Assembly: GCA_031258715.1 (NCBI GenBank)
Contig: JAIRMN010000022.1
Location: 1 to 32,177 of the forward strand
Length of the DNA stretch: 32,177 nt
Direction of reading: 5' to 3'
DNA from: Zoogloeaceae bacterium
GTDB taxonomy: Bacteria > Pseudomonadota > Gammaproteobacteria > Burkholderiales > Rhodocyclaceae
Shown: positions 6,004-19,851 of the stretch, piece by piece
Position numbering within the stretch: the first letter of the stretch is position 1
Layout: each line of letters starts with the position of its first letter
Made by a program: the position numbers and the translations under genes
The notes under the pieces: generated by a model
Told to the model about the DNA's origin: nothing
The model's database searches: none
The model's input: the letters and a program-made list of their open reading frames with translations, nothing else

Positions 6004-6921
6004 TCATAGGCTTCCAGAGAGCGCCTTGCGGATGGCTTCCGCTTCTTTTGCCGCGTCCTGCTTTTCCAGCAGGGGAATAGAGGCCGCCATATATCCGGCG
6101 ACGCCTTTGATGCTGGCCGAGTAGCGAAGAAAAACCTCCAGACCCTCTTCATCATCCCGCCATCCAAAGGCAGCGGAGATTTCCATGAATTCGGCAAGCC
6201 GCGTTTCATGGGAACTGAAGAACCGCCAGAGCGGCAGGATGACGCGCTCCGGCGGCCTTTCAAAGGTTGCGATCTGTCCGCCCAGGCCGCCCATATCGGA
6301 TAACGCGCGTAACACCAGCCGCGCGTCACGGGTTTCCAAGGCACCTTCCAGGGCGAGGAGGTACTTGTCCTCCGCGGACAATGTGAATATCTGGACAAGC
6401 GCATAGGATTTGCTCAGGTCATCCCAGGACAGGACATGGGTTGTCGTCGTGGTTTCTCCAGCACTCCACTCATATCTTGTTTCAAAAAGCGTCAGTGTCT
6501 TTCCGTCCGGGCTGAAATACCCGGACAAGGTTGAATCCCAAGCGAATCTCCAATAAAACAGATCCGGCGCAAAGGGTAATGGTTCGTGGCTCTCGCATGT
6601 TTCGGGAAGCGCGCAGGACCAGGCGGGGAAATGGCTGGCATCACCAAGCAAGACGCCATCATCGCCGCTGAAGATGATTCTCTTGGGATACTGAGGCGTG
6701 TCTTCCAAGGTAAAAACCCACAAATATCTGGTATGGCCAAACCCCATGAATTCGCTGTAATCGACGCGCGTCACCAGACGCCCGTCCGGTGCGCGCCATA
6801 TTACATCGGTATACCCCAGCGTTAATTCGGGCAAATCCGCCCGCGCTTTTCCCGCCAGGAAAAAGAGGCTTATGAAGAAGAGAGAAAAAATCCGTCGCAT
6901 GGCTTGTCTCCTTGCCGTCAC
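6004..6921 (-). CDS. Hypothetical secreted protein
   Basis: 305-aa ORF with N-terminal signal peptide (MRRIFSLFFISLFFLAGKARA); no family recognised. Start may be the internal Met (MRRIF). Confidence 0.7.
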   Translation of the reverse strand: MTARRQAMRRIFSLFFISLFFLAGKARADLPELTLGYTDVIWRAPDGRLVTRVDYSEFMGFGHTRYLWVFTLEDTPQYPKRIIFSGDDGVLLGDASHFPAWSCALPETCESHEPLPFAPDLFYWRFAWDSTLSGYFSPDGKTLTLFETRYEWSAGETTTTTHVLSWDDLSKSYALVQIFTLSAEDKYLLALEGALETRDARLVLRALSDMGGLGGQIATFERPPERVILPLWRFFSSHETRLAEFMEISAAFGWRDDEEGLEVFLRYSASIKGVAGYMAASIPLLEKQDAAKEAEAIRKALSGSL

Positions 6922-7123
6922 CTTGTGGCGCGTGCGGCGCGCGTTTCGGCTTTTCCGGCAAAGCGGTTTCCAGATACCCCGGCAGGATACACGGATTTAT
7001 TCGTAAGTGACATGCCGGGCCATGAGATGACCTGACGCGCCACCTTCGTCGTCCTGAAGCGCGAAACGTCGCGGCGCGCGCGCCCTCGTAATTTCTAGGC
7101 GCACGGCGACTCGGCAATTGAGT

Positions 7124-7143
7124 TGATAACAATTCTCATTCAT
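7124..7143. promoter_or_regulatory. Putative Fur box
   Basis: tgataacaattctcattcat resembles the Fur consensus GATAATGATAATCATTATC (about 12/19 identities by eye); 35 bp upstream of the 7178 start. Confidence 0.5.
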
Positions 7144-7177
7144 TGACATTTTATCGGGCATCGTTCAGACTTTTTCA

Positions 7178-9349
7178 ATGACCGCAACCCATCCTCCGCG
7201 CCATCGTTATCCGGCTCTCCTGCCTTTTTCCTGTCCGCCGCAAGCCGATTGGCTTTTGTCGCTCACCCTCTGTCTTCTGGCGCTTGCCACCCATTTTCCG
7301 GCGCTCCCCCTGTTCGCCTGGCCGGTTTTTTTCCTTGCCCTGGGTAGCCGTTTCCTGCCGCGCCGTTTTTGGGCGGCGGCGCTGCGCCTCGTTTTTTTGT
7401 CCGTTGTCGTCATTACGCTCGGTCTGCTCCATGGCTGGCTGGACGACCGCACCTTGCGGCTTTCCCTCATGCTGGCGTTGCTCTTGAAATGGGCGGAAGC
7501 GAAAACCGCGCGGGAGTTTGTCCTCCTAGCGGGCGCGGCGCTCCTGGCGGGCGCCATCGGCGTATTGCAATGGAACGAATGGATCGGCCTCATCCTGATC
7601 CTGCTTTTGTCGATCGTCGCCCTGGGCGTCCTGGAAGCCGCCAGCGACGGCAGGCGTTCCGTGCGAGCGGCGCTCCTGCGCAATTCGGGACGCATCCTCA
7701 TGGCCTTGCCGCTCGCCGCTGTGCTCTTCCTCTTTTTTCCGCGCATTCCCGGCCCCTTGTGGGACATTGGCCTTTCCTTCGGATTGCCGCTCACGCTCAG
7801 CCTCGAAAAGTCCAACCAGGGACTGGGCGTCTCCACCCGCCTGAAACCCGGCCAAGAACAGACGCAAGCTGGCGTGGCCGAAAGCCAGCCGGTGTTGGTG
7901 GCGGAATTCGAGAACTGGGTACCGCCCACCGCGCTGCTTTACTGGCGCGGGCCGGTGTATTACGACTTCGACGGACAGGAGTGGCGGCTGGACACGGAAT
8001 ACGAGGCGGGTCAAGGGCGCAAGCTCATGCGTCGCGGCTGGACGAAGGCCAGCGTCTTTGGCGAAACCCTGAAGCGCAAGGGGCAGGAAATTCGTTACCA
8101 GGTGCGCATCACGCCGCATGAACGCCTCTGGCTCTATGGACTCGATCTGCCTTCCGGCCTAACCAGCGAAGCGTTCATCAGCCAGGATTGGCAGGTGCTT
8201 TCGCATCGTCCGATACGCGAGGAAACAAGTTACCACTTGAGTTCCTGGCTGGATTGGGAAGCGGGCGGCGCGTTATCCGAGGCATTGCGCCAACGCGCGC
8301 TCGCCCTGCCGCCAAACGGCAATCCGCGCCTCAAGGCGCTGGGCGCGGAACTCGCCGCCCTGCCAGATGTCGAGGATCGCTACAAGGCCGTCCTCGCGTC
8401 GCTTGCGCGGGAGGGGTATACGCTGCGCGACCAGTTCGCCTTCCAGGAGGGGGCGGACGCCTTCGATAATTTCTGGTTCGAGACGCGCACGGGCAACGCC
8501 GACCTCTATGCCGGCGCCTTCGTTTTTCTGATGCGCGCCGCAGACGTCCCGGCGCGGCTCGTCACCGGCTATCGCGGCGGAAAGCTGGTTGCCCTGACCG
8601 ATTATGTAATCGTCAAGAAAAGCCATGCTCACGCCTGGGCGGAAATCTGGGAAGAGGCGCGGGGTTGGCGACGCATCGACCCCATCGATCTGATCGCGCC
8701 GGAACGCTTTGAGAGCACCGCCGCGACGCGCCCAAAATCCACGCCCAACCCGACGGCGCCCAAGCCCAAAACCGAACCCTCCCGCCCGGTAAATCCGCCG
8801 AAAACGCCCGCGCCCACTCCGCAACAAAAGCGCGAGGAATCGCCTGCCGGCGCGTTCAACGTCGCGGTGTCCACGCCCGCGTCGTCTGGCTGGCATCTTC
8901 CCGATCTGGGCGATTTCCTGGGGCGCTGGATTTTTCGTCTCGACGCCGGGACGCAACAATCCCTGATCGGTGGGCTTGGCGGTGGATTCGCATGGGTATG
9001 GCTCCTGGGCGGCGCGACTTTGGGCAGCGCGCTGGTGATGGTCATGGGACAACTCCTTGCCCAACTGCGCGCCCACCGCCGCCTGCCGCCGCCCGAACGC
9101 GAATGGCGGCGCATCTGCCGCCTGTTGCGGCAACACGGATTTTCGTATGCTGACTGGGAATGCCCCAGCGATTTCGCCCGCCGTGTCGCCGCCGCCCGTC
9201 CGCGCTGGAAAAAGGAAATGACCGCCTTCACGCTGGCCTATACCGACTGGCGCTACGCCGCTGGACGCGCCGACGCGCCTATGCGTGCTGCAGCCTGCGC
9301 CCGCCGCCTGTACAACCTGATTCTTGCCGATGTCCAGCCTATTTCATGA
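7178..9349 (+). CDS. DUF3488/transglutaminase-like membrane protein (TgpA-like)
   Basis: N-terminal multi-TM region, RAADVPARLVTGYRGG, HAHAWAEIWEEARGWRRIDPI, C-terminal DUF4129-like region. Confidence 0.88.
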   Translation: MTATHPPRHRYPALLPFSCPPQADWLLSLTLCLLALATHFPALPLFAWPVFFLALGSRFLPRRFWAAALRLVFLSVVVITLGLLHGWLDDRTLRLSLMLALLLKWAEAKTAREFVLLAGAALLAGAIGVLQWNEWIGLILILLLSIVALGVLEAASDGRRSVRAALLRNSGRILMALPLAAVLFLFFPRIPGPLWDIGLSFGLPLTLSLEKSNQGLGVSTRLKPGQEQTQAGVAESQPVLVAEFENWVPPTALLYWRGPVYYDFDGQEWRLDTEYEAGQGRKLMRRGWTKASVFGETLKRKGQEIRYQVRITPHERLWLYGLDLPSGLTSEAFISQDWQVLSHRPIREETSYHLSSWLDWEAGGALSEALRQRALALPPNGNPRLKALGAELAALPDVEDRYKAVLASLAREGYTLRDQFAFQEGADAFDNFWFETRTGNADLYAGAFVFLMRAADVPARLVTGYRGGKLVALTDYVIVKKSHAHAWAEIWEEARGWRRIDPIDLIAPERFESTAATRPKSTPNPTAPKPKTEPSRPVNPPKTPAPTPQQKREESPAGAFNVAVSTPASSGWHLPDLGDFLGRWIFRLDAGTQQSLIGGLGGGFAWVWLLGGATLGSALVMVMGQLLAQLRAHRRLPPPEREWRRICRLLRQHGFSYADWECPSDFARRVAAARPRWKKEMTAFTLAYTDWRYAAGRADAPMRAAACARRLYNLILADVQPIS

Positions 9350-9359
9350 GGAAAGCTCC

Positions 9360-10547
9360 ATGTCATCACTTTGCCGCCTCGTCTTCGCGCTCGTCTTTTC
9401 CATTTTTCCCCTCACGCTTCACGCCGAAGGCATCGACGGCGAAACGGTGATCGCCGACATCCTGGCGCGTGGCGAAGCGGGCGTCGCTGCCTATGATCCA
9501 GCGAATCCGCTCGCCACCGCCGGTGAATTCTCGGCGCTCTATTTCGATCGCTTTGAGCATCTGGAGCTTGATCTGGGTCTCAAGGACGCCAACCTGAAGA
9601 ACGAACTGGAAATCCTGTTCGGCGCGTTGAACGGCGGTGCCATGCGCGGCGTGCCGAAAGCGCAACTGGAAACCGCTTGGCAGGAACTGGAAGGCAAGCT
9701 CGCGCTGGCGCGGGCGCTTTACGCCGAAAGCGAACAGGCCAGCGGCGGCGGCACTTTCTTGAAGGCGCTGACCATCCTGCTCAGGGAAGGTGTGGAGGCC
9801 ATGCTGGTCGTCGGCGCGCTGGCGGCCTATCTGCGGCGCGCAGGCGCGGCGGATCGGGTATGGGTCATCTACGCGGGCGCGGCGGCGGCCATTCCCCTCT
9901 CCCTTCTGACCGGATGGGCGGTCAATGATTTCCTTCAATCCACGGGCGCGCCGTTGGCGGTGGTGGAAGGCGTCACCATGCTGGCGGCCTCTATCGTGTT
10001 GTTCTACGTGAGTTGCTGGATGTTCGCCAAACGCGAAGCCAAACGTTGGGAAGAATGGATCGCCCGGCAAATGGACGCCGCCCTGGGCAAGGGTTCCCTC
10101 TTGACACTCTCCGGTGCGGCCTGCCTGGCGGTCTACCGGGAAGGCGCGGAGACCGTGCTGTTTTATCAGGCGCTGGCGCTGCAATCGCCGGGGCAGACAT
10201 TTTTTCTCTACGCGGGACTGGGCGTTGCCGCCCTCCTCCTCATCGCCTTCTTTTTCCTGATGCGTCACGCGGCGCTGCGCCTGCCCTTCAAGCTCTTCTT
10301 CGGCGTAACCTCGACCCTGCTCTATGGCCTCGCCGTCATCTTTCTCGGCCAGGCCATCGTCGAACTCCAGGCCGCAGGCTGGATCGCCAGCATCTACATC
10401 CCCGGCTTCCCGCACATCAACTGGCTGGGCATCGCCCCCACCGCCCAAAGCCTGGGCGCGCAGGCAACCCTGCTCTTCCTGCCACTGGCGTGGTGGCTGG
10501 TGAAAGGACGGTTCCCAGGAAAGCAACCAGCCGTCAGGAATCCATAG
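9360..10547 (+). CDS. FTR1-family iron permease with N-terminal periplasmic extension
   Basis: Two REGxE motifs (LLREGVEAMLVV and YREGAETVLFY), signal peptide, multiple TM segments. Start at internal Met MSSLCRLVF. Confidence 0.9.
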   Translation: MSSLCRLVFALVFSIFPLTLHAEGIDGETVIADILARGEAGVAAYDPANPLATAGEFSALYFDRFEHLELDLGLKDANLKNELEILFGALNGGAMRGVPKAQLETAWQELEGKLALARALYAESEQASGGGTFLKALTILLREGVEAMLVVGALAAYLRRAGAADRVWVIYAGAAAAIPLSLLTGWAVNDFLQSTGAPLAVVEGVTMLAASIVLFYVSCWMFAKREAKRWEEWIARQMDAALGKGSLLTLSGAACLAVYREGAETVLFYQALALQSPGQTFFLYAGLGVAALLLIAFFFLMRHAALRLPFKLFFGVTSTLLYGLAVIFLGQAIVELQAAGWIASIYIPGFPHINWLGIAPTAQSLGAQATLLFLPLAWWLVKGRFPGKQPAVRNP

Positions 10548-10756: not shown

Positions 10757-12213
10757 ATGAAATTTTCCTCCTTGCCGTTTCGCGCTTTCCTGTTGACGCT
10801 GTGCCTCCTCCTGGGCACGGCGGGACGGGCATGGGGGCAGTCTGGCGATAACGACCTGCCGGAACTGGGCGATTCCGCCAGCACGGAACTGAGTATGCAG
10901 GCCGAAAAAAGGATCGGCCAGGAGATCATGATCGAAATCCGGCGCAACGCGATGTATCTCGACGACCCGGAAGTCGAAGCCTATCTGAACCGCCTGGGCA
11001 ACCGGCTGTCCGCCGCCAGTCCCGATCCCGGCATCGGGTTTTATTTCTTTCCGGTGGATGACCCGATGATCAACGCCTTTGCCATGTTCGGCGGCTATAT
11101 TGGCGTAAACAGCGGGCTGGTGCTGGCGGTGCAGAACGAATCGGAACTGGCGGGCGTGTTGGCGCACGAAATCTCGCACGTCACACAGCGCCATCTGGCG
11201 CGCGGCATTGCCCGGCAAAAACAGATCGGCGGCGCGACCCTCCTGGCGCTTGCCGCCGCCATCCTGCGGCGCATTCCAACCCGGACGCAATGGGTGCGGC
11301 AGTAACGGGCGTGTCCGCCGGAGGGATACAGGCGCAGTTGGGCTTTTCCCGCGACTTTGAGCGCGAAGCCGACCGCGTGGGTTTCCAGACATTGCAGAAG
11401 GCCGGGTTCGATGTGCGCGGCATGTCCGCGTTTTTTTCCCGTTTGCAACGGGCCACGCGGGTCTATGAAAACAACGCGCCGGTCTATCTGCGCACCCACC
11501 CGTTGAATACCGAGCGCATTTCCGACATGCAGAACCGGGAACTGAACCAACCTTACCGGCAGGTGTCGGACGGCCTGGAATTCCAGCTTACGCGCGCGCG
11601 CTTGCAGGCCATGCGCAGCACGGCCAACGAAGCGGTCACGCATTTCCAGACACTCCTCGCCGAACAGAAAACCCTGAATGCCGCCGCGACGCAATATGGC
11701 TTGGCGGTTGCCCTGGCGCGCAAAAAGGACTGGGCGGCGGCGGAAAACATCCTGAACATCCTGCGCCAGGAAGAGGAAAACGCTTCGCCCATGATCGACC
11801 GCCTTTACGCCGAAGCCCGCGTCCGGCGCGGCGATCTGGCGGGAGGACTGGCGGCCTTCCAGGAAGCCTTGCAGCGCTATCCCGATGCCGCGGCAGTGGT
11901 TTATTCCTATGGCGAAGCGCTGCTGGAAAATCGGCGCTTCGCCGAAGCGCGGGCTTTTTTTGAACAGCGCCTGCGCAAGGATACGGCGGATGCCCGGCTC
12001 TACAAATTGCAGGCGCGCGCCTGCGCGGCACTGGGCAAGACAGGGCAACAGCATCAGGCGCTGGCGGAAGCCTACGCGCTGGAGGGCGCGCTGCCCGCCG
12101 CCATCGAACAACTCGAACTCGCGCAACGCGCCAAAGACAACGACTTTTATACCAGTTCCGCTATCGACGCCCGTCTGCGCCAATTGAAACAAAGACAGGC
12201 GGAAACGAAATAG
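10757..12213 (+). pseudogene. bepA: M48 metalloprotease with TPR region (BepA/YfgC-like), split by an apparent 1-nt frameshift near 11263-11275
   Basis: ORF 10757-11305 holds the signal peptide and HEISH zinc motif; ORF 11290-12213 continues with GFSRDFEREADRVGF and TPR-like repeats. Inserting one G in ATCCTG-CGGCGC restores AILAAHSNPDAMGAAVTGVSAGG. Confidence 0.8.
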
Positions 12214-18618: not shown

Positions 18619-18780
18619 GTTTTCCTCTCACTCAATTCAACAACAACTCGATACGCTTTCCTGGCGGGAAGTCCGCGCGGATAAACGAAAAGAGCGCCCT
18701 GCCAACGAGACAGGCCGCCCTTGCAACGGATTGCGCGAAGCATGGGCGCGCACCGCGCCCCGTGCGGGACACGCGCCCCT

Positions 18781-19050
18781 TTATTTGCGCAGCCCAAGAC
18801 GTTCGATCAGGCCACGATAACTGTTTAGATCCCTGTCCTTCAGATAATCCAGCAATTTGCGGCGCTGGCTCACCATGCTGAGCAGTCCGCGCCGGGAGTG
18901 GTGATCCTTCTTGTGCTCCTTGAAGTGCCCGGTAAGGTCGTTGATGCGGGCGGTCAGAAGCGCGATCTGCACTTCGGAAGACCCGGTATCTCCGGGCGCA
19001 CGCTGGAATTCGGCAACAATTTTTGCCTTTTGTTCGGTCGTAACAGCCAT
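18781..19050 (-). CDS. rpsO: 30S ribosomal protein S15
   Basis: [57 protein letters not shown]. Confidence 0.98.
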
Positions 19051-19260
19051 TTCAAACACGCTTTCCAAAAACGGCGCCGCCCCGGTTTGAGAGAGCCAAC
19101 GCCAGACAAATGAACCCGAAAGACGCGCGACACGCTAGAATACGCGCTTTCGGCGGGAATCCCGTGCGTCCGCGCACAAGAGGGTCGGGATTCTATCAGT
19201 ATCGGCGCGCAAAGGGTAGTCTTCCTTTGACCCCTCCCGCGTGGCAATTCATGAGGCATC

Positions 19261-19851
19261 ATGGGGAAAACAGGAACCGGGGAAATGGACATGGCATTCC
19301 AGGGAGGCTGGCTTTCTTCGGCGCGACGGATCATCAGCCCGAATTTCGACGCGCGGCCCGCAAACGAGACGGTTTCGCTCATCGTCCTGCACAGCATCAG
19401 CCTTCCGCCGGAAGAATTTGGCGGGCATCATGTGGCGGCGTTATTTACAAATACGCTGGATGGCGCGGCGCATCCTTATTTTGCCCCGCTGGTCGATACG
19501 CGCGTCTCCGCCCATTTCTTCATCCGGCGCGACGGCGGGTCGATCCAGTTCGTGAGCGCGGAGGATCGCGCCTGGCACGCCGGAAAATCGCGCTGGCAAG
19601 GCCGGGAAAACTGCAACGATTTTTCCATTGGCATCGAACTCGAAGGCAGCGAACGGCAGGCATTCACGCCCGCCCAATACGCCGCCCTCTGGCCGCTGCT
19701 GACCCTCCTCTGCGCCCGCTATCCGATACGCGCCATCGTTGGCCACGAACACATCGCGCCCGGACGAAAAACCGACCCCGGCCCCCACTTCGACTGGCCA
19801 ACCCTCGCCAGACGCTTTCCGGAACAAGGGGTGATTGAAAGCGCCGGATGA
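19261..19851 (+). CDS. ampD: 1,6-anhydro-N-acetylmuramyl-L-alanine amidase AmpD
   Basis: VLHSISLPPEEFGG, SAHFFIRRDG, HAGKSRWQGRENCNDFSIGIELEG, GHEHIAPGRKTDPGPHFDW. Confidence 0.94.
   Translation: MGKTGTGEMDMAFQGGWLSSARRIISPNFDARPANETVSLIVLHSISLPPEEFGGHHVAALFTNTLDGAAHPYFAPLVDTRVSAHFFIRRDGGSIQFVSAEDRAWHAGKSRWQGRENCNDFSIGIELEGSERQAFTPAQYAALWPLLTLLCARYPIRAIVGHEHIAPGRKTDPGPHFDWPTLARRFPEQGVIESAG

What the first reader, a model, noticed from the sequence alone, without database searches (positions are those of the whole stretch)
8490..8660. Transglutaminase-like protein appears to lack its catalytic cysteine
The segment ETRTGNADLYAGAFVFLMRAADVPARLVTGYRGG...SHAHAWAEIW aligns by eye with the transglutaminase core of DUF3488/TgpA proteins, which as recalled reads TRRGFCEHFA.AFV.LMRAAGIPARVVTGYQGG...HAWAE. 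The Cys position is Ala here (GCC at 8498-8500, residue 441 of the 7178 ORF). The HAWAE histidine and a downstream Asp are kept. The frame is otherwise intact, which suggests a pseudo-transglutaminase rather than a decaying gene.
Basis: partly seen in the sequence, partly recalled or inferred. Interest (0 to 1): 0.66.

Follow-up and report, generated by a model that had tools for sequence, protein, structure and literature searches.

The report
Inactive transglutaminase paired with iron permease
A bacterial membrane protein built like the enzyme TgpA has permanently lost its catalytic cysteine, is kept under selection across several genera of one bacterial family, and nearly always sits directly next to an iron-transporter gene, which suggests a dead enzyme reused as a binding or scaffold partner in iron handling.

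Summary
The 7178-9349 ORF (723 aa) is a full-length TgpA-like protein (TgpA_N + Transglut_core + DUF4129) with Ala441 where TgpA has its catalytic Cys; no Cys exists anywhere in its periplasmic domain. It is not an error or a decaying gene: 16 homologues from at least 6 genera of one family (Rhodocyclaceae/Zoogloeaceae-like) all lack the Cys (15 Ala, 1 Ser), form one branch (SH-aLRT 100) apart from 23 Cys-bearing TgpAs, and are under purifying selection (core dN/dS 0.13-0.30). The genome also keeps an ordinary Cys-bearing TgpA. The paralogue has its own conserved signature (FCEH to NA[D/E]L, new His483 and Asp504, retained Asp501) and a predicted TgpA fold. New beyond the finding: in 14 of 16 loci an FTR1-type iron permease follows (13 times within 50 bp), both genes co-occur across the genus, and a Fur-like box precedes the pair here. 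In relatives the pair ends a larger T2SS-like/multihaem-cytochrome cluster with its own MoxR and DUF58. Best reading: a duplicated MoxR-DUF58-TgpA unit whose TgpA became a non-catalytic partner of FTR1, possibly binding iron in the former active site (inferred, untested).

The parts
7125..7146 (+). Fur-box-like site GATAACAATTCTCATTCATTGA, about 32 bp before the start codon (reverse strand reads TGAGAATTGTTATCA)
   Evidence: 13 of 14 specified positions of TGAGAATNATTATCA, 0 of 300 shuffles as good; same site at the same place in L035 and L036; 0.01 expected in window shuffles at up to 3 mismatches, but that pattern was written from these three sites, so describes and does not test
7178..9349 (+). 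pTgpA: TgpA-like protein without catalytic Cys, 723 aa
7262..8251 (+). TgpA_N (PF11992): membrane helices plus first part of the periplasmic domain
   Evidence: residues 29-358, E 3.3e-40; helices in the model
8408..8683 (+). Transglut_core (PF01841), predicted catalytically dead
   Evidence: residues 411-502, E 1.8e-15; model pLDDT mostly above 90
8495..8506 (+). N440-A441-D442-L443, replacing the F-C-E-H of active-type TgpA
   Evidence: FCEH in 24 of 24 Cys-bearing TgpA; N 14/16, A 15/16 (S 1/16), D/E 14/16, L/F 15/16 in the pTgpA group
8624..8632 (+). H483-A484-H485: H485 is the old catalytic His; H483 is new (16/16; D/E/A/T in active-type TgpA)
8678..8689 (+). D501-P-I-D504: D501 is the old catalytic Asp; D504 is new (15/16; A/F/G/S in active-type TgpA)
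9104..9301 (+). C-terminal DUF4129 (PF13559)
   Evidence: residues 643-708
9360..10547 (+). FTR1/EfeU-family iron permease, start codon 10 bp after the pTgpA stop
   Evidence: PF03239 E 7.4e-20; below the NCBIfam EfeU cut-off
9783..9797 (+). first REGxE motif of FTR1 (REGVE)
   Evidence: sequence; both motifs found
10137..10151 (+). second REGxE motif of FTR1 (REGAE)
   Evidence: sequence

Best explanation
This is a fixed pseudoenzyme branch of the TgpA family (call it pTgpA). Shown: the Cys is gone in the whole branch, the domain is kept under purifying selection with its own invariant residues, and the gene is almost always directly followed by an FTR1-type iron permease. Inferred: a MoxR-DUF58-TgpA unit was duplicated, became attached to a T2SS-like/multihaem-cytochrome locus, and its TgpA lost catalysis and became an inner-membrane partner of FTR1. 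The most likely mechanism is that its transmembrane part docks on FTR1 and its periplasmic pseudo-active site (H483, H485, D501, D504) holds iron or an iron-bearing ligand near the FTR1 entrance, the place that EfeO/EfeM take in EfeUOB. In the window's lineage the pair has left the cluster and stands alone behind a Fur-like box, so it probably serves iron uptake there.
For: Cys absent in 16/16, no alternative Cys. One branch, SH-aLRT 100. dN/dS 0.13-0.30 in the core, 0.08-0.26 in residues 200-360, against 0.28-0.64 in the linker. New conserved His and Asp next to the retained pair. FTR1 next door in 14/16 loci, spacing -4 to +49 bp in 13 (for the window, ATG at 9360); no FTR1 near 23 ordinary tgpA loci, though most of these carry only about 1 kb of downstream sequence. 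Genus co-occurrence: pTgpA in 8 of 9 genomes with this FTR1 and 0 of 12 without (4e-5 if genomes were independent); the ninth has its FTR1 381 bp from a contig end. Fur-like box. TgpA fold: Foldseek to 6g4h, TM 0.92 by target.
Against: No metal binding, no FTR1 contact and no iron phenotype has been shown. H485 is Tyr in L045 and D504 is Ser in L058, so a site using all four residues is not universal. I had no atomic coordinates, so ligand distances were not measured. In most relatives the pair sits in a T2SS-like/cytochrome cluster, so the ancestral job may concern that system and not iron supply. A good Fur-like box upstream of pTgpA was seen only in the window, L035 and L036. L044 has pTgpA without FTR1 beside it (an FTR1 of this type lies on another contig of that genome).
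Confidence: 0.45

Rival explanations
1. pTgpA is a non-catalytic scaffold of the MoxR-DUF58-TgpA kind: with its own MoxR ATPase and DUF58 protein it assembles or matures the T2SS-like/multihaem-cytochrome complex, and FTR1 supplies iron for haem or is a passenger in the operon.
For: MoxR and DUF58 lie in the same cluster in L038, L044, L045, L056, L057, L059, L060, L061 and L062, in most cases with secretin, Pom barrel, GspG-like protein and a 5-haem cytochrome or DHOR. The window's genome keeps that part on contig C16.
Against: The window and L035 have pTgpA away from the cluster together with FTR1 only. G002 has pTgpA-FTR1 but no detectable cluster cytochrome, and G006 and G010 have the cytochrome without pTgpA or this FTR1. 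So FTR1 is the tighter partner.
Confidence: 0.33
2. pTgpA is still an enzyme with another chemistry, using the new His/Asp residues (for example a metal-dependent hydrolase) or Ser in the L062 branch.
For: New conserved H483 and D504 beside H485 and D501; L062 has Ser at the Cys place.
Against: 15 of 16 have Ala at the nucleophile position; the residues on either side are also replaced; L045 has Tyr for the catalytic His. I could name no precedent in this fold.
Confidence: 0.12
3. The gene is a relic on its way to loss.
For: Loss of the nucleophile; a truncated, fused copy in the Accumulibacter contig L038.
Against: Intact frames in the other loci, purifying selection, invariant pseudo-active-site residues, gene pair kept across several genera.
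Confidence: 0.03
4. Isolated mutation, assembly or base-calling error.
For: The window comes from a fragmented draft (233 contigs).
Against: Same codon GCC in all nine sequences whose codon was read, Ala or Ser in all others.
Confidence: 0.01

Closest known systems
TgpA of Pseudomonas aeruginosa (PA2873; 6g49/6g4h; PMC3507681)
   Same: Membrane protein with a periplasmic transglutaminase-fold domain; predicted fold of that domain matches (TM 0.92 by target), about 32% identity, His and Asp of the triad kept
   Different: Cys replaced by Ala and its neighbours F, E/A, H replaced; new H483 and D504; next gene is FTR1; the P. aeruginosa domain was purified and assayed for transglutaminase activity
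Erythrocyte band 4.2 (EPB42) and other inactive members of the transglutaminase fold (PMC10888553, PMC10318531)
   Same: A transglutaminase-fold protein without catalysis; EPB42 is membrane-associated and, from memory, also has Ala for Cys
   Different: Eukaryotic, cytoplasmic side of the membrane, no link to iron transport; independent origin
EfeUOB/M and FtrABCD iron systems (PMC9174327)
   Same: An FTR1-family inner-membrane permease encoded with extracytoplasmic partners
   Different: Partners there are M75/cupredoxin or peroxidase proteins; here the constant neighbour is a pseudo-transglutaminase. The permease scores below the NCBIfam EfeU cut-off
MoxR-DUF58-TgpA operons
   Same: Relatives of the window have MoxR and DUF58 with pTgpA; the window's genome has a normal MoxR-DUF58-TgpA set on contig C162
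   Different: The pTgpA version is embedded in a T2SS-like/multihaem-cytochrome cluster and followed by FTR1

Membership tests
TgpA family (DUF3488/TgpA_N transglutaminases) | TgpA_N + Transglut_core + DUF4129 in one membrane protein | tested here: met
   model
TgpA family (DUF3488/TgpA_N transglutaminases) | Periplasmic domain with TgpA fold | tested here: met
   Foldseek to 6g49/6g4h, E about 1e-21 to 1e-22, TM by target 0.89-0.92
TgpA family (DUF3488/TgpA_N transglutaminases) | Cys-His-Asp catalytic triad | tested here: not met
   Cys absent in 16/16, His kept in 15/16, Asp in 16/16. Hence a pseudoenzyme paralogue branch by homology, not a functional TgpA
TgpA family (DUF3488/TgpA_N transglutaminases) | Transglutaminase activity | not testable with these tools
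   needs protein
TgpA family (DUF3488/TgpA_N transglutaminases) | MoxR and DUF58 genes upstream | tested here: not met
   not beside it in the window; present upstream in nine relatives, and on contig C16 in this genome
FTR1/EfeU permease family (downstream gene) | FTR1 domain and two REGxE motifs | tested here: met
EfeUOB / FtrABCD iron system | Permease encoded with EfeO/EfeB or P19/cupredoxin partners | tested here: inconclusive
   No imelysin, DyP or cupredoxin domain among the ten neighbouring proteins scanned, but not every ORF of the window was scanned; permease below the NCBIfam EfeU cut-off
Fur regulon | Fur box at the promoter | tested here: inconclusive
   Good match to the consensus in the window, L035 and L036; binding and the presence of a Fur protein were not tested

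The most novel reading that the evidence does not exclude
A new kind of iron-uptake unit: an FTR1 permease whose periplasmic iron-binding partner is a transglutaminase whose active site was converted from Cys chemistry to a His/Asp metal site, derived from a MoxR-DUF58-TgpA operon inside a T2SS-like, multihaem-cytochrome locus.
Probability: 0.27. Interest if true: 0.78.

Novelty: new variant of a known kind. Interest (0 to 1): 0.56.

Why it matters
TgpA was reported as critical for viability in P. aeruginosa (PMC3507681). A natural, selected, Cys-less branch separates what the fold does as an enzyme from what it does as a membrane partner, and its constant FTR1 neighbour gives a concrete, testable function. 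It would add a bacterial membrane example to the inactive transglutaminase-fold proteins and a new type of FTR1 partner.

Tried and rejected
Sequencing error, isolated mutation and gene decay: rejected by homologues, tree and dN/dS. Cys elsewhere in the core: none in residues 200-512. Wider spread: samples of 399 genomes of the order, 369 of the class and 399 of the phylum gave no further member at E 1e-85 to 1e-110; a more diverged branch could be missed, and the samples overlap. A more distant genome (G893) with a related multihaem cytochrome has no detectable pTgpA beside it. Literature searches for the cluster (secretin + MoxR + DUF58 + cytochrome; FTR1 + multiheme + secretin) and for a transglutaminase-like pseudoenzyme found nothing; the library is open-access only. 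A Fur-like box upstream of the C16 secretin gene was looked for and not found. The second structure-prediction job and two of three fold searches were not used.

Full report
OBSERVATION. The frame 7178-9349 (+) is open and codes for 723 aa. Pfam finds TgpA_N, Transglut_core and DUF4129, all above cut-off. The only PDB sequence match is P. aeruginosa TgpA (6g49/6g4h, E 3.9e-42). In that alignment SGFCAHYAG pairs with TGNADLYAG, so Ala441 (GCC, 8498-8500) takes the place of the Cys, while H485 and D501 are kept. There is no Cys anywhere in residues 200-512.

IS IT FIXED? The window's genome has a second, ordinary TgpA with GFCEHYA on contig C162, with MoxR and DUF58 upstream. Searches of relatives gave 15 further loci of the Cys-less type: within the genus (G002, G004, G007, G011, G012, G014, G016), in other genera of the family (G096, G149, G152, G215, G238, G239, G276) and in an Accumulibacter contig (L038). 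All lack the Cys: 15 of 16 (window included) have Ala and L062 has Ser. L035, L036 and L037 match G002, G014 and G016 and were not counted twice. The named records are Zoogloeaceae MAGs and an Accumulibacter MAG, so the window very probably belongs to that group (inference).

The 16 sequences form one side of a branch against 23 Cys-bearing TgpAs (SH-aLRT 100). Because the tree is midpoint-rooted for drawing only, 'clade' is an inference. The signature is a coordinated change: F-C-E-H, present in 24/24 active-type sequences, becomes mostly N-A-[D/E]-[L/F]; position 483 changes from mostly D/E to an invariant His; position 504 from mostly Ala to Asp; other framing residues change too (R466, K469, A472-L473-T474, K480). 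Pairwise dN/dS among six members is 0.13-0.30 in the core and 0.08-0.26 over residues 200-360, against 0.28-0.64 in the linker (Nei-Gojobori). This is a maintained protein, not a relic. L045 has also lost the catalytic His (Tyr), which fits the absence of catalysis.

STRUCTURE. AlphaFold2 on the 38-row alignment gives mean pLDDT 81.7, with blocks in the transglutaminase core mostly 90-98. The closest solved structure is TgpA's periplasmic domain (TM 0.92 by target length). A441 opens helix 441-454, H485 lies at the start of strand 484-492 and D501 follows strand 496-500, the usual transglutaminase arrangement. I had no coordinates, so the suggestion that H483, H485, D501 and D504 come together as a metal site is inference from sequence and fold only.

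PARTNER. The next gene (ATG 9360, 10 bp after the stop) is an FTR1-family permease with two REGxE motifs. The same permease follows pTgpA in 14 of 16 loci, with -4 to +49 bp between them in 13 and a gap of roughly 0.9-1.2 kb in L042 (the window's -20 is an upstream alternative ATG). The exceptions are L038, whose pTgpA frame runs into a membrane-fusion-protein-like sequence after about residue 506 (that identification is by eye), and L044, whose genome has the permease on another contig. In the genus, pTgpA is present in 8 of 9 genomes with this FTR1 and in none of 12 without; the ninth (G019) has its FTR1 381 bp from a contig end. Several of these genomes are incomplete and they are not independent, so the nominal 4e-5 overstates the case.

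REGULATION. A Fur-box-like site lies at 7125-7146, about 32 bp before the start codon; the same site is in L035 and L036 at a similar distance. The pattern shared by the three occurs with no mismatch only here in the genome. That binding occurs, and that a Fur protein is present, was not tested.

WIDER LOCUS. In relatives the pair is the end of a long cluster: prepilin-like proteins, GspM-like, PilT-like and GspE ATPases, GspF, secretin, Pom-type outer-membrane barrel, (di-haem oxidoreductase), MoxR, DUF58, a small membrane protein, a 5-CxxCH cytochrome, GspG-like protein, pTgpA, FTR1 and a small putative lipoprotein (CxxCH count); not every locus has every part. The window's genome holds the secretin-to-GspG part on contig C16, apart from pTgpA-FTR1. 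So the pair has been separated from its ancestral cluster but not from each other (direction of change inferred). G002 keeps the pair without a detectable cluster cytochrome, and G006 and G010 the reverse.

MECHANISM. Best explanation: duplication of a MoxR-DUF58-TgpA unit, loss of catalysis, and reuse of the protein as an inner-membrane partner of FTR1, its former active site perhaps binding iron. That is analogous in position to EfeO/EfeM in EfeUOB/M; a minimal complex of binding protein and permease is described for B. subtilis (PMC9174327). Shown here: loss, fixation, selection, predicted fold, gene linkage. Inferred: physical contact, metal binding, role in uptake. The main rival is a non-catalytic MoxR-type assembly scaffold for the cytochrome/secretion complex.

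NOVELTY. Inactive transglutaminase-fold proteins are known (EPB42, Rad4/XPC, menin, FBXO21; PMC10318531, PMC10888553). I found no description of an inactive TgpA branch or of its link to FTR1 in the open-access library. I rate it a new variant of a known kind.

Noticed in passing
L045 1-10690 with L084; L044; L056; L057; L059-L062; L064 2851-10040: A long conserved cluster joining T2SS/type-IV-pilus-like parts (GspD, E, F, G, M, PilT-like, prepilins) with a Pom-type outer-membrane barrel, multihaem or di-haem cytochromes, MoxR, DUF58, pTgpA and FTR1. No description found; it may be an electron-transfer or secretion system worth its own study.
   Followed up: partly
window 10757-12213 (+): An M48-type metallopeptidase/TPR gene (HEISH motif near 11166) is split between two overlapping frames (10757-11305 and 11290-12213): frameshift or assembly error.
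   Followed up: no
L038 about 9401-10004: In the Accumulibacter contig the pTgpA frame passes after about residue 506 into sequence that looks by eye like an RND membrane-fusion protein: real fusion or misassembly.
   Followed up: no
L042 about 6147-7310: About 1 kb separates pTgpA from FTR1, with a weak Fur-box-like site (14/19) just before FTR1.
   Followed up: no
L071 (G000:C108), about 18717-19334 of the contig: A second, more distant FTR1 protein in the same genome (about 700-aa frame, 36% identity); distant FTR1 hits are also seen in some genus members that lack pTgpA.
   Followed up: no
L058 4331-4630, L057 3431-3718, L045 10538-10690: A small putative lipoprotein (CEREVQSVEWYKDHDAERM or similar) follows FTR1 in several loci.
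   Followed up: partly
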